A stretch of 64,000 bases of DNA, from assembly GCF_000518705.1 (NCBI RefSeq), contig NZ_JAEC01000007.1, positions 162,473 through 226,472 of the forward strand, read 5' to 3'. Both the position numbers and the translations under genes were made by a program. Shown here piece by piece: positions 61,485 to 64,000 of this stretch. Source of the DNA: Shewanella colwelliana ATCC 39565 (GTDB lineage Bacteria; Pseudomonadota; Gammaproteobacteria; Enterobacterales; Shewanellaceae). Numbering within the stretch: position 1 is the first letter of the stretch; each line of letters starts with the position of its first letter. Under the pieces are notes generated by a model that was not told where the DNA came from, searched no databases, and saw nothing but the letters and a program-made list of their open reading frames with translations.

Positions 61485-62019
61485 TGTCGGTTAATGACTC
61501 GTTTATGTTGAGGCCGATTAGCGTTGTGACTAGGTAACCTGAACGCGGGTTAAGTGAGCAATCACAAGCTAATCCGCTTTTTTTTGATAAAAGTTAACAG
61601 GTTTTTTTCCCCAAAGTTGGGTGGCCTTGGAATGAAGGTTTGGCATTTTTTTAAGTTTGCTTGAGTAGCGTTATGCTGAATTCTCACTTATTGATTGGCT
61701 TTGAAAACGCACCTTGATGACTGTTAATTGCCTGCCGCAGGCTTTATGTGCAAGCGCTCTTTTGGCTCGCTGTGAATATGTCCCTATACGCTCCACGGTG
61801 GCATCCCTGCCACCAAGGGCCAAAACCGCGCTTACACTGGGTTATTTTATCTCTTCGATTTAACTTCATTTGGGACTAATAACGCATTAAAAGCTAACGT
61901 GCTTTTGCCCCAAAATGAGTTAACACGTTGTCGGTGGATCAGTACCTAACGGGCTTTCTGGCCTAGACATTTTCATCGCTACACCAGCGAGATGTAATTC
62001 ACTACTTCCCAACCAAAAA

Positions 62020-62035
62020 CTGGATAACTATACAG
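62020..62035. promoter_or_regulatory. LexA-like box
   Basis: CTGGATAACTATACAG fits the SOS box CTGT-N8-ACAG with one mismatch, in an AT-rich spacer. It lies about 120-275 bases before the first attC-type cores. In integrons the integrase promoter carries a LexA site near attI, but no integrase gene follows here. Confidence 0.4.
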
Positions 62036-62162
62036 TCATATTCAAATTATCAGGATTTTGAACGATTTTCATCCTGTATTCGTGCGCGTTTTCTCATGTT
62101 GATTTTAATAAATGGCATTAGAATTAATCACTTATACTATTTGTTAAGTAGATAATAGGTTT

Positions 62163-62187
62163 GGAAAACGCGCATGCGCGTTTTTCC
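62163..62187. repeat. GCGCATGCGC palindrome
   Basis: AAAACGCGCATGCGCGTTTT (62165-62184) is a perfect 20-base palindrome, extended by GG/CC with one extra T. Related arms lie at 62243-62252 and 62270-62285. Confidence 0.7.
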
Positions 62188-62233
62188 AGATGGTATATTT
62201 AGCAAAATGCTGATAAGTTCATTATATACAGAT

Positions 62234-62301
62234 AGTTAACTGTGCGCGTTTTCACTGGTCCAACGAGGTAAACGCGCATGCGCACTAATAAAATGTTAAG
62301 T
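62234..62301 (+). repeat. Candidate attC site before cassette 1 (attC0)
   Basis: AGTTAAC (62234-62240) and GTTAAGT (62295-62301) are the outer cores. Between them GTGCGCGTTT (62242-62251) pairs with AAACGCGC...GCGCAC (62270-62284). The left core differs at one base from the ACTTAAC expected if an ORF-less cassette began at the GTTAAGT of 62143. The structure is attC-like, but the left core does not fit RYYYAAC fully. Confidence 0.5.
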
Positions 62302-62305
62302 GCTA

Positions 62306-62698
62306 ATGATAATTAGAGAATATTTCGAAAAATTAGATTTACATGATGCATCAATCGAAAAGGTTGAGCGGCTAGGTGATGATGTTATATTGAGCATAAG
62401 AGGTGTACTTGTCCTCAAAGATCACCCTATGTCACAAGGCGATAACCTGTTCATTGAAGATTGTAAGCTAAAAATTGTAGGAGTCTCATCTGAAGTCGCG
62501 AAATTCTGGGAGAATGATGTTGCTCCAATAAGTCACCCTGAACCAGATTATCCACTCGATGAAATTATGAATGCTTCTTTTGAAAATGGTGTTTTTCATT
62601 TCGATGGTTTCAAAAATACAACTCCATGGTACGAGTGGTTTCTTCATGCAAATGGATTCGAATTAGATGTTTACAATTATAAAAAGGGTGGCACTTAA
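62306..62698 (+). CDS. Cassette 1 hypothetical protein, 130 aa
   Basis: The ATG at 62306 (MIIREYFEKLDLHDASIEKV) lies ten bases past the cassette's left crossover point; an in-frame GTG at 62300 is less likely. The stop TAA is inside the core ACTTAAC of the next attC. The L-H-D-A-x-I start recalls a loose group of small proteins often found in cassettes, but I can name no family. It is acidic and has no signal peptide. It has the lower GC content of foreign cassettes. Confidence 0.75.
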   Translation: MIIREYFEKLDLHDASIEKVERLGDDVILSIRGVLVLKDHPMSQGDNLFIEDCKLKIVGVSSEVAKFWENDVAPISHPEPDYPLDEIMNASFENGVFHFDGFKNTTPWYEWFLHANGFELDVYNYKKGGT

Positions 62699-62794
62699 CA
62701 AGGGCAAGCAACGGACTCGTCAAACTGTCACTTTTTGTGCATGGAGCCGCACAAAAACCGCCAGTTTAACTCACCGCTGTTGCCGGCGTTATAC
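62693..62794 (+). repeat. attC recombination site 1
   Basis: The left core ACTTAAC (62693-62699) is the exact complement of GTTAAGT (62295-62301) at the other end of the same cassette, as in circular integron cassettes. The right core is GTTATAC (62788-62794). Between them lie complementary arms GGCAAGCAACGG / CCGCTGTTGCC, AAACTG/CAGTTT, and a perfect TTTTTGTGC/GCACAAAAA. Total length 102 bases. Confidence 0.78.
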
Positions 62795-62811
62795 GAAAAA
62801 GATAGAGAGCT

Positions 62812-63144
62812 ATGAAAATAGGTAACTCAGTCAAGCTATCAGGAGGATATGATTACGAACCTAAATGGCTTCCTTATGACGAGCATGTTATTGGTGAGGT
62901 AATTAAATTTATTCCTGGCCAAAACTCAGAACTTGCTGCTGTTATTAAATTGCCTAAATCTATAACTGTAGATTCAACTACTGGTAATATATTGGTATTA
63001 GAGTTACGCCATGAAGGAGCTAAATGGGTTGAAGAAGGTATAGTCCATTTAGAGTTATGTGATTTCATGCCTGATGACATTAGGTGGCAAGATAGAAGGC
63101 AAGGGCTGTGGGCAGAGGCAGCGGCATCCTATGTGGTTCAATAA
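62812..63144 (+). CDS. Cassette 2 hypothetical protein, 110 aa
   Basis: The ATG at 62812 follows GAGAG and starts 24 bases after the crossover point (G62788|T62789). The protein (MKIGNSVKLSGGYDYEPKWL) is acidic, with beta-strand-like character and a helical end (GLWAEAAASYVV). No family is recognised. Its stop lies six bases before attC 2, a compact fit typical of cassette genes. Confidence 0.75.
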   Translation: MKIGNSVKLSGGYDYEPKWLPYDEHVIGEVIKFIPGQNSELAAVIKLPKSITVDSTTGNILVLELRHEGAKWVEEGIVHLELCDFMPDDIRWQDRRQGLWAEAAASYVVQ

Positions 63145-63149
63145 AAAAC

Positions 63150-63207
63150 GTATAAAAAGGCAAAGCATTAGGACTCGCTGCGCTCGCCTATGTTTGCGGC
63201 GTTATGT
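63150..63207 (+). repeat. attC recombination site 2
   Basis: Left core GTATAAA (63150-63156) matches six of seven bases of the complement (GTATAAC) of the cassette's own opening core GTTATAC. Right core GTTATGT (63201-63207). Between are pairing arms GGCAAAGCATTAGG and CCTATGTTTGCGGC with bulges. Length 58 bases. Confidence 0.68.
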
Positions 63208-63219
63208 TTAAGGAGAGGT

Positions 63220-63699
63220 ATGGCTACCTGGCAATTTTCAGTAGTATTAATTCCAACTTCTTGGGTTAAGGGAAATAGTTATAATTCTTCATTACTTTAT
63301 GATGAGGATGGCTATGATGCTGAGATTGCTTGGAAAGATAGACAGCCTGAATCAGGATTTAAGTCTTTTCTTGATGATATTCTCTCTCCATCAGAATCAT
63401 GGGACGATGACTTACTGATTTGGGGAAATGAGAAGGGTAATGATATTCAAGTTTGGTTTGAAAATGATGAGATTGATGGCATACATATTCGTTTAGATTT
63501 AAATCAGAATTTAAATGATATTATCGACAAAATAGTTAATGCTGCTCAATCCCTCAGTTGCTCATTTTTCTTTCCAGAGTTTAAGTCAATTGTTGATGCG
63601 AATGAATTTGAAATAAAAAAGGCTATTAGAGAGTCAAATGCGGCTAAGTTCGTTCTTAATCCACAAGGTTTTCTAAATGGGCTTAGCAAAAAAACATAA
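63220..63699 (+). CDS. Cassette 3 hypothetical protein, 159 aa
   Basis: I start it at ATG 63220 (MATWQFSVVLIPTSW), with AAGGAGAGG just before it; an upstream in-frame ATG at 63190 lies in the attC. The stop TAA is inside the ACATAAC core. It is acidic, with a SESWDDDLLIWGNEKGNDIQ segment and a helical end. I do not recognise a family. It has no signal peptide. Confidence 0.77.
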   Translation: MATWQFSVVLIPTSWVKGNSYNSSLLYDEDGYDAEIAWKDRQPESGFKSFLDDILSPSESWDDDLLIWGNEKGNDIQVWFENDEIDGIHIRLDLNQNLNDIIDKIVNAAQSLSCSFFFPEFKSIVDANEFEIKKAIRESNAAKFVLNPQGFLNGLSKKT

Positions 63700-63749
63700 C
63701 AAATAAGGATAGGCCGCGCGTAGCCGCGTCCTTATCCCGAGTGTTGAAC
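63694..63749 (+). repeat. attC recombination site 3
   Basis: Left core ACATAAC (63694-63700) is the exact complement of GTTATGT (63201-63207), the opening core of the same cassette. Right core GTTGAAC (63743-63749) fits GTTRRRY perfectly. Arms AATAAGGATAGG and CCTTATCC pair, with an inner CCGCG/CGCG. Length 56 bases. Confidence 0.78.
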
Positions 63750-64000
63750 AAGCCCGGGTTTGTAGGAAGTGATACCTTTATATAGTAAATAGCGGCGTGA
63801 GAGCTCACGCTGGTTTAGGTCGGGGAGCTTAATTTACACTTTTGGCTAGCCATAGCTATCCCTTAGCACTGACAGCCAATAAGTAAGCCTATAGTTTCAA
63901 AAGCTTAATCACCTCCTGCGTTTCACTTCTAGCGATCTAAAATTTCAAAATCCTGTTATCTTACCGCTTAAACAGTGGCGTTAGATTGCTAAGTGCTCTG
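63750..64000. other. Right end, possible fourth cassette
   Basis: No ORF of useful size is seen. A hairpin GCGTGAG/CTCACGC lies at 63795-63810. GGCGTTAGAT with core GTTAGAT (63980-63986, fitting GTTRRRY) resembles the right ends of attC 1 and 2, so a cassette of about 237 bases without an ORF may end here. I cannot find its expected left core GTTCAAC. Confidence 0.35.

What the first reader, a model, noticed from the sequence alone, without database searches (positions are those of the whole stretch)
62143..63986. Integron-type gene cassette cluster without a visible integrase
Three plus-strand hypothetical genes lie one per unit, each closed by an attC-like hairpin. The strongest point is internal consistency: GTTAAGT opening cassette 1 (62295) is the exact complement of ACTTAAC closing it (62693); GTTATGT opening cassette 3 (63201) is the exact complement of ACATAAC closing it (63694); for cassette 2 (GTTATAC and GTATAAA) six of seven bases fit. 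That is the known rule for circularised cassettes. Stops lie in or next to the cores. No tyrosine recombinase is readable in the window. The three proteins have no recognised family.
Basis: partly seen in the sequence, partly recalled or inferred. Interest (0 to 1): 0.78.

Follow-up and report, generated by a model that had tools for sequence, protein, structure and literature searches.

The report
Scattered attI docking sites for cassettes
In this Shewanella genome a three-gene integron cassette array starts at one of at least five scattered copies of the cassette-docking site attI, apart from the integrase gene, and in related species such docking sites stay in place while the genes behind them mostly differ, so one integrase likely serves many gene-capture points around the chromosome.

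Summary
The cassette cluster is real: three one-gene units; attC1 is strong, attC3 fair, attC2 weak. The array starts at an exact copy (28 of 28 bases, 62270-62297) of the published Shewanella attI site, inside a 149-bp unit that lies beside intI in five relatives. Four more such copies lie on other contigs of this genome, and one integron integrase gene lies elsewhere, on C34. Relatives have up to 13 copies by a strict pattern. At 24 orthologous positions (43 genome pairs, flanks at least 85% identical) the unit right after attI differs in 40 of 43 pairs; in 26 of those 40 the right flank is conserved too. Of 79 non-recurrent first units, 3 have a relative in any other fetched array. So attI positions are stable while cassettes turn over. 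Best reading: a distributed integron, one integrase serving many attI platforms in trans. Trans action is inferred: 8 of 15 searched genomes lack an integron integrase match, and this genome's own copy looks impaired. One prophage precedent is published; my searches found no genome-wide description.

The parts
61731..61919 (+). REP-like repeat (edges approximate) that abuts the left end of the attI leader
   Evidence: Read; the same kind of repeat occurs in many copies in relatives, many of them without attI; its TTGCCCC end lies upstream of attI in 41 of 102 loci.
61920..62148 (+). Leader of the dispersed attI copy (edges approximate), with a LexA-like box CTGGATAACTATACAG at 62020-62035
   Evidence: The box lies 113 bases before the attI unit; in five intI-linked copies the CTG-N10-CAG box lies 112 bases before it. 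CTG-N10-CAG in 28 of 100 leaders, TATACAG in 63 of 100, against 3% and 4% of random stretches. Function untested.
62149..62297 (+). 149-bp attI unit; the 28-base attI site is 62270-62297
   Evidence: 28 of 28 bases equal to the attI printed in PMC9892861; same unit beside and divergent from intI in G011, G012, G053, G064, G074.
62295..62787 (+). Cassette 1; ORF 62306-62698 (130 aa, no family)
   Evidence: two relatives besides itself in the protein search.
62693..62794 (+). attC1
   Evidence: DNA fold z -4.6, 0 of 200 shuffles as good.
62788..63200 (+). Cassette 2; ORF 62812-63144 (110 aa, no family)
   Evidence: 96 proteins listed, itself included.
63150..63207 (+). attC2, weak
   Evidence: Six of seven core bases fit; DNA fold no better than shuffles, z -0.03.
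63201..63742 (+). Cassette 3; ORF 63220-63699 (159 aa, no family)
   Evidence: 50 proteins listed, itself included.
63694..63749 (+). attC3
   Evidence: Core sites exact complement; DNA fold z -2.3, 6 of 200.
63743..64000 (+). Right repeat from GTTGAAC to the contig end, probably the end of an IS91-like element
   Evidence: 99% copy closes another cassette array on C14; in G058 L096 the same kind of terminus runs into an IS91-type transposase remnant (Y2_Tnp over cut-off; IS91 model 43.7 bits, under its cut-off of 125). Inferred for the window.

Best explanation
The cassette array at 62295-63742 begins at an exact copy of the Shewanella attI site, and this attI is one of at least five in the genome that lie apart from the integron integrase gene, which likely loads cassettes into them in trans. 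The dispersed copies are position-stable platforms: a leader with a LexA-like box, a 149-bp attI unit, then one or more cassettes or a non-coding unit. Shown: their identity to intI-linked attI, their number, their shared positions in related species, and the differing cassettes behind them. Inferred: that IntI does the inserting, that the leader matters for expression or control, and that attI copies are gained by a process that favours the ends of REP-like repeats.
For: attI identity: 28 of 28 bases with the published site and the same 149-bp unit next to five intI genes. The five IntI beside it are 87-98% identical to this genome's IntI; four IntI loci at 41-46% identity lack the unit in the fetched stretch. 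Dispersal: five GTT-ended copies in this genome on C3, C5, C15, C21, C40; 42 of 129 genus genomes match the strict pattern, reversed-pattern control 0 of 129. Cassette rule 55 of 79 against 4.5. Stable site, changing content: 40 of 43 strict ortholog pairs differ in the first unit, 26 of those 40 with the right flank conserved. New arrivals rather than shuffling among loci: 3 of 79 first units have a relative in another fetched array. Constraint: attI unit 88% identical between unrelated copies of different genomes, the 140 bp before it 57%.
Against: No recombination was observed. 8 of 15 genomes with the sites have no integron integrase match at E <= 1e-60; G113 has only other types and G058's cognate one is shortened with HTFSHS for HT(F/L)RHS. 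In two loci with cognate-type IntI (G058 L114; the own C34) no attI unit is in the fetched stretch (own cut by contig end and insertion sequence). The own IntI has G where 11 of 11 other aligned integron integrases have E near the catalytic arginine, and an ISL3-type insertion sequence end has replaced half of its LexA box. attC2 is weak. 24 of 79 first units fail the exact rule. In G053 the dispersed copies are not closest to the resident intI-linked attI. No sigma-70 consensus promoter was found in the leader.
Confidence: 0.8

Rival explanations
1. Graveyard: each dispersed attI array is the remnant of a once complete integron that lost intI, and the cassettes behind it are leftovers that no longer change.
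For: 8 of 15 genomes lack an integrase match; the own integrase looks impaired; arrays are short; CALINs have been proposed to be degraded integrons (passage of PMC9024848).
Against: First units differ at 40 of 43 orthologous positions, with both flanks kept in 26, which static leftovers would not give; the leader differs from the intI flank and is shared among dispersed copies, so they are not independent intI deletions; the attI unit is more conserved than its leader.
Confidence: 0.13
2. Cassettes reach these places by ordinary homologous recombination between repeated attI/REP sequences, which swaps arrays between loci and strains, without IntI acting there.
For: attI units and REP-like repeats are long enough repeats to recombine; the right flank of the window's locus differs between G058 (sensor kinase) and G074 (xseA); one unit recurs behind 10 of 100 attI copies in three genomes.
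Against: Apart from that recurrent unit, 3 of 79 first units are found in any other fetched array, so swapping within the sampled set does not supply the diversity; changes start at the G/TT point and obey the cassette rule.
Confidence: 0.05
3. attG-type insertion: cassettes entered ordinary genomic sites that only by chance look like attI.
For: attG sites are a described route of cassettes into genomes (Loot et al. 2024, seen only as cited in passages of PMC12444791 and PMC12901181).
Against: The target is an exact attI within a 149-bp unit shared with intI-linked copies.
Confidence: 0.02

Closest known systems
CALIN with its own attI in Shewanella prophage M16-3 (PMC9892861, section 3.3 read)
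   Same: A cassette array without adjacent intI that starts at the same 28-base Shewanella-type attI
   Different: One case, on a cryptic prophage that also carries the complete integron; here several chromosomal copies per genome at positions shared between species
CALINs and single orphan cassettes (SALINs) of Shewanella (PMC9229058, results section and passages read)
   Same: Short cassette clusters away from intI, in genomes with and without intI
   Different: The parts read do not mention attI at their heads, shared positions or content turnover
CALINs at conserved loci in Xanthomonas (PMC12444791, passages read)
   Same: Cassette clusters at several recurrent positions away from intI
   Different: The passages read do not report attI copies there
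Sedentary chromosomal integron with one intI-linked attI (general knowledge; here G011, G012, G053, G064, G074)
   Same: Same attI unit, same cassette rule
   Different: One platform beside intI instead of many apart from it

Membership tests
Complete integron | attI site at the head of the array | tested here: met
   Exact 28-base attI at 62270-62297
Complete integron | intI adjacent to attI | tested here: not met
   No TIGR02249 match on contig C5; integrase on C34. What lies right of 64000 is unknown.
Complete integron | Cassettes closed by attC sites | tested here: met
   attC1 strong, attC3 fair, attC2 weak
Complete integron | Cassette promoter Pc | tested here: inconclusive
   No sigma-70 consensus in 61880-62320; only a consensus scan
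CALIN | At least two attC sites without integrase nearby | tested here: met
CALIN | Detection by an attC covariance model (IntegronFinder) | not tested
attG insertion | Target site unlike attI and attC | tested here: not met
   Target is an exact attI
Distributed integron (proposed) | Several attI copies, each followed by cassettes, at positions shared between species with differing content | tested here: met
Distributed integron (proposed) | One integrase acts in trans on the dispersed attI | not testable with these tools
   Needs a recombination assay

The most novel reading that the evidence does not exclude
Shewanella runs a distributed integron: a single stress-controlled integrase feeds about ten or more attI platforms fixed around the chromosome, each with its own LexA-boxed leader, so newly caught cassettes land in a first, expressed position in many places at once instead of queuing in one array.
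Probability: 0.5. Interest if true: 0.86.

Novelty: new variant of a known kind. Interest (0 to 1): 0.72.

Why it matters
Integrons are usually described as one integrase, one attI, one array. Many fixed attI platforms would multiply the first cassette positions in a genome, would explain the many short CALINs and single cassettes reported in Shewanella (PMC9229058), and would make trans action of IntI testable on natural sites. IntegronFinder 2 does not look for attI outside class 1 by its authors' account (PMC9024848, passage), so such platforms can be overlooked. The attI unit is also on plasmids (20 of 72,556 records); the two looked at have fosG or dfrA1 directly behind it.

Tried and rejected
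Tried without result: Rfam on the window (0 matches), on six related loci (only an RNA-OUT antisense RNA) and on the recurrent GTTCTTG unit (one chance-level match); Pfam, NCBIfam, PADLOC and PHROGs on the three cassette proteins (nothing at or near cut-off); solved-structure sequence search and fold search for cassette proteins 2 and 3 (no match at E <= 0.001; protein 1 was not modelled); plasmids sharing the cassettes (2 records, only about 60 bases at the terminal attC).

Considered and rejected: that the left and right repeats are two ends of one transposon: the right repeat matched in 8 of 15 genomes, mostly as a short attC piece, and looks like the end of an IS91-like element. That attI copies are homogenised toward the resident intI-linked attI: not seen in G053. 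That the REP-like repeat is part of attI: it occurs in many places without attI, and at the flavocytochrome locus G074 has the repeat without attI where this genome has repeat plus attI. The search for words such as 'orphan attI' with word-start matching returned mostly 'attitude' papers and is no evidence.

Selection and dropped rows: of the matches I fetched only part (for example 12 loci for 25 matches in G058, 7 for 11 in G074, 10 for 15 in G039, 10 for 14 in G051, 10 for 12 in G083, 10 for 11 in G053). L084 and L104 had no attI and were not counted. L082 and L168 are second views of L066 and L159: they are in the 102 loci and removed. One search left out copies without a GTT end, with little downstream sequence, or with the GTTCTTG unit. 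Without the strict flank limits the count is 3 alike and 51 different of 54 pairs.

Full report
WHAT WAS CHECKED. The window is the last 64,000 bases of contig C5 (226,472 bases) of a 4.58-Mb draft genome. The genus is Shewanella: the same-genus set includes G112, whose contig lengths (4,972,204 and 278,942) equal those of Shewanella sp. ANA-3. The three ORFs and the core sites are there. As single-stranded DNA attC1 folds far better than its shuffles (z -4.6, 0 of 200), attC3 moderately (z -2.3, 6 of 200), attC2 not (z -0.03, 82 of 200).

THE HEAD OF THE ARRAY IS attI. A search of 129 genus genomes with the 3.1 kb around the array showed that the sequence left of 62297 is a repeat, and in many matches the homology stops at the GTT of the first core site. 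The 28 bases ending there, 62270-62297, equal the 'Shewanella-type attI site' printed in PMC9892861 (passages and section 3.3 read), which the paper says differs from the S. oneidensis MR-1 site by one base. In five genomes (G011, G012, G053, G064, G074) the same 149-bp unit lies beside and divergent from an integron integrase gene. Those five IntI are 87-98% identical to this genome's IntI; four IntI loci at 41-46% identity have no such unit in the fetched stretch. Two further loci with the cognate type show no unit in the fetched stretch: a shortened one in G058 (L114), and the own C34, which is cut by the contig end.

IT IS ONE OF SEVERAL. This genome has GTT-ended copies on C3, C5 (the window), C15, C21 and C40 and a degenerate one on C6. 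C3 is followed by three units that obey the cassette rule. C40 starts with the recurrent GTTCTTG unit, then an HNH-endonuclease cassette. C15 has one gene and an attC that lacks its right end. C21 has the GTTCTTG unit running into the contig end. Fifteen genomes, mostly closed, gave 2 to 25 matches to the 410-bp repeat, partial ones included (G065 only weak ones). A 30-base pattern with up to 3 mismatches hit 42 of 129 genus genomes, at most 13 per genome (G058, G112, G113), and the reversed pattern hit none. In 257 genomes of the order, the 28-mer with up to 3 mismatches hit 12, four of them outside the genus with 1 to 3 copies. An exact degenerate scan of the 84,980-species collection found 33 stretches: 28 Shewanella, 3 Pseudoalteromonas, 2 Vibrio. 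Plasmids: 20 of 72,556 records; phages: one phage in two records.

CASSETTES FOLLOW, AND THEY DIFFER. I fetched 100 distinct attI loci from nine genomes (102 counted, two of them second views). Of 79 with a GTT end, enough downstream sequence and a non-recurrent first unit, 55 obey the exact cassette rule with a hairpin; with 7-mers swapped among loci the mean is 4.5 and the maximum 11 of 79. Orthologous positions were called from the upstream flank beyond the repeat. With flanks of at least 370 bp and 85% identity there are 24 locus groups, 57 loci (52 still ending in GTT) and 43 genome pairs, never two loci of one genome in a group. The first unit is alike in 3 pairs and different in 40; in 26 of those 40 the right flank is also conserved (at least 450 bp, 85%) within the fetched 4 kb. 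Example: G112 L077 and G053 L188 share 95% on the left and 94% over 3 kb on the right, with 924 and 338 bp of different DNA between. Of the three alike pairs one has a decayed attI (L081/L167), one has the recurrent GTTCTTG unit (L096/L101) and one has an intact attI with the same cassettes (L071/L158). Of 79 first units only 3 have a relative in any other fetched array. At the window's own locus, with the same glyoxalase on the left, G058 and G074 have attI followed by the GTTCTTG unit and other genes.

MECHANISM. Most likely the integrase, encoded elsewhere in the genome or earlier in the lineage, inserts incoming cassettes at any of the attI copies. Shown: attI identity, dispersal, shared positions, differing cassettes, and conservation of the attI unit (88% between unrelated copies of different genomes, 57% for the 140 bp before it). 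Inferred: that IntI acts on these copies in trans. The window's leader has a LexA-like box 113 bases before the attI unit; in five intI-linked copies the box is 112 bases before it. CTG-N10-CAG occurs in 28 of 100 leaders and TATACAG in 63 of 100 (the intI-linked loci included), against about 3% and 4% of random stretches of the same loci. Whether it controls anything is untested, and no sigma-70 consensus was found there. How attI copies arise is open. A REP-like repeat end lies just upstream in 41 of 102 loci, and at the flavocytochrome locus G074 has the repeat without attI where this genome has repeat plus attI, so copies are gained or lost at repeat ends.

AGAINST IT. Eight of 15 genomes have no integron integrase match at E <= 1e-60. 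G113 has only other types, and G058's cognate one is shortened and reads HTFSHS where the others have HT(F/L)RHS. The own IntI has G where 11 of 11 other aligned integron integrases have E near the catalytic arginine (the importance of that residue is recalled, not tested), and the end of an ISL3-type insertion sequence has replaced half of its LexA box. So integrases come and go faster than attI copies, and many strains may be silent now. In G053 the dispersed attI copies are not closest to the resident intI-linked one.

NOVELTY. CALINs and single cassettes are reported in Shewanella (PMC9229058; results section and passages read); the parts read do not mention attI at their heads. One prophage CALIN with its own attI is reported (PMC9892861). 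My paper searches (one search was spoiled by word matching) listed no paper that describes genome-wide dispersed attI with cassette turnover. Of the papers listed I opened five (PMC9229058, PMC9892861, PMC9024848, PMC12444791, PMC12901181). The library holds open-licence papers only, so this is no proof of absence.

THE CASSETTE PROTEINS. None matches a family. Protein 1 has two relatives besides itself; proteins 2 and 3 have 96 and 50 listed hits, themselves included. Proteins 2 and 3 are predicted with high confidence (mean pLDDT 93.7 and 94.8) but match no solved fold at E <= 0.001. Their functions remain unknown.

Noticed in passing
window 63743-64000; L063, L076, L084, L085, L087, L088, L096, L103, L107, L111, L130: Several arrays end in the same attC followed by GTTGAACAAGCCCG, directly after TAAC of the cassette's closing core site; this looks like the end of an IS91-like element that supplies the rest of the last attC.
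   Followed up: partly
L059, L062, L085, L087, L090, L096, L100-L103: A recurrent non-coding unit of about 280 bp starting GTTCTTGACCTGCGG stands first behind 10 of 100 attI copies (G074 4 of 7, G058 4 of 12, own 2 of 5), none in the other six genomes; no Rfam match at gathering score.
   Followed up: partly
G000 C34:1-1084 (L001, L009): The own integron integrase ORF is intact (319 aa) but has RVSG for RVSE, and an ISL3-type insertion sequence end sits in its LexA box.
   Followed up: yes
L148 (IncC plasmid pN069_1), L149 (Moellerella plasmid pNX2019-MW2): attI-like unit on conjugative plasmids with fosG or dfrA1 directly behind it; no integron integrase is annotated in the 10-kb stretches shown.
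   Followed up: no
G078 (six places): Six copies of a variant attI end (ATATGCGCATGCGCACTATTAAAATGTT) in one genome: a second attI lineage may be dispersed too.
   Followed up: no
window about 61923-61980, minus strand; same place in L097, L062, L085: A small ORF of about 18 codons beside the LexA-like box reads MK-SR-ES-L-T-P-T-C in several leaders and may be a real SOS peptide or a remnant (reading).
   Followed up: no
window locus in G058 (L096) and G074 (L101): Same left flank (glyoxalase, attI) but different right flank (sensor kinase versus xseA), suggesting rearrangement at attI arrays.
   Followed up: no
L159/L168 (G113) and L186 (G053): The same DNA (AATGAAATGGACACCCC...) interrupts the attI end at one locus in each of two genomes, perhaps an insertion sequence that targets the attI end.
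   Followed up: no
L075 (G112) and L174 (G083): The first cassette at one attI locus of G112 is found at 99% identity in the array of a different attI locus of G083, a likely cassette transfer between platforms of two species.
   Followed up: no
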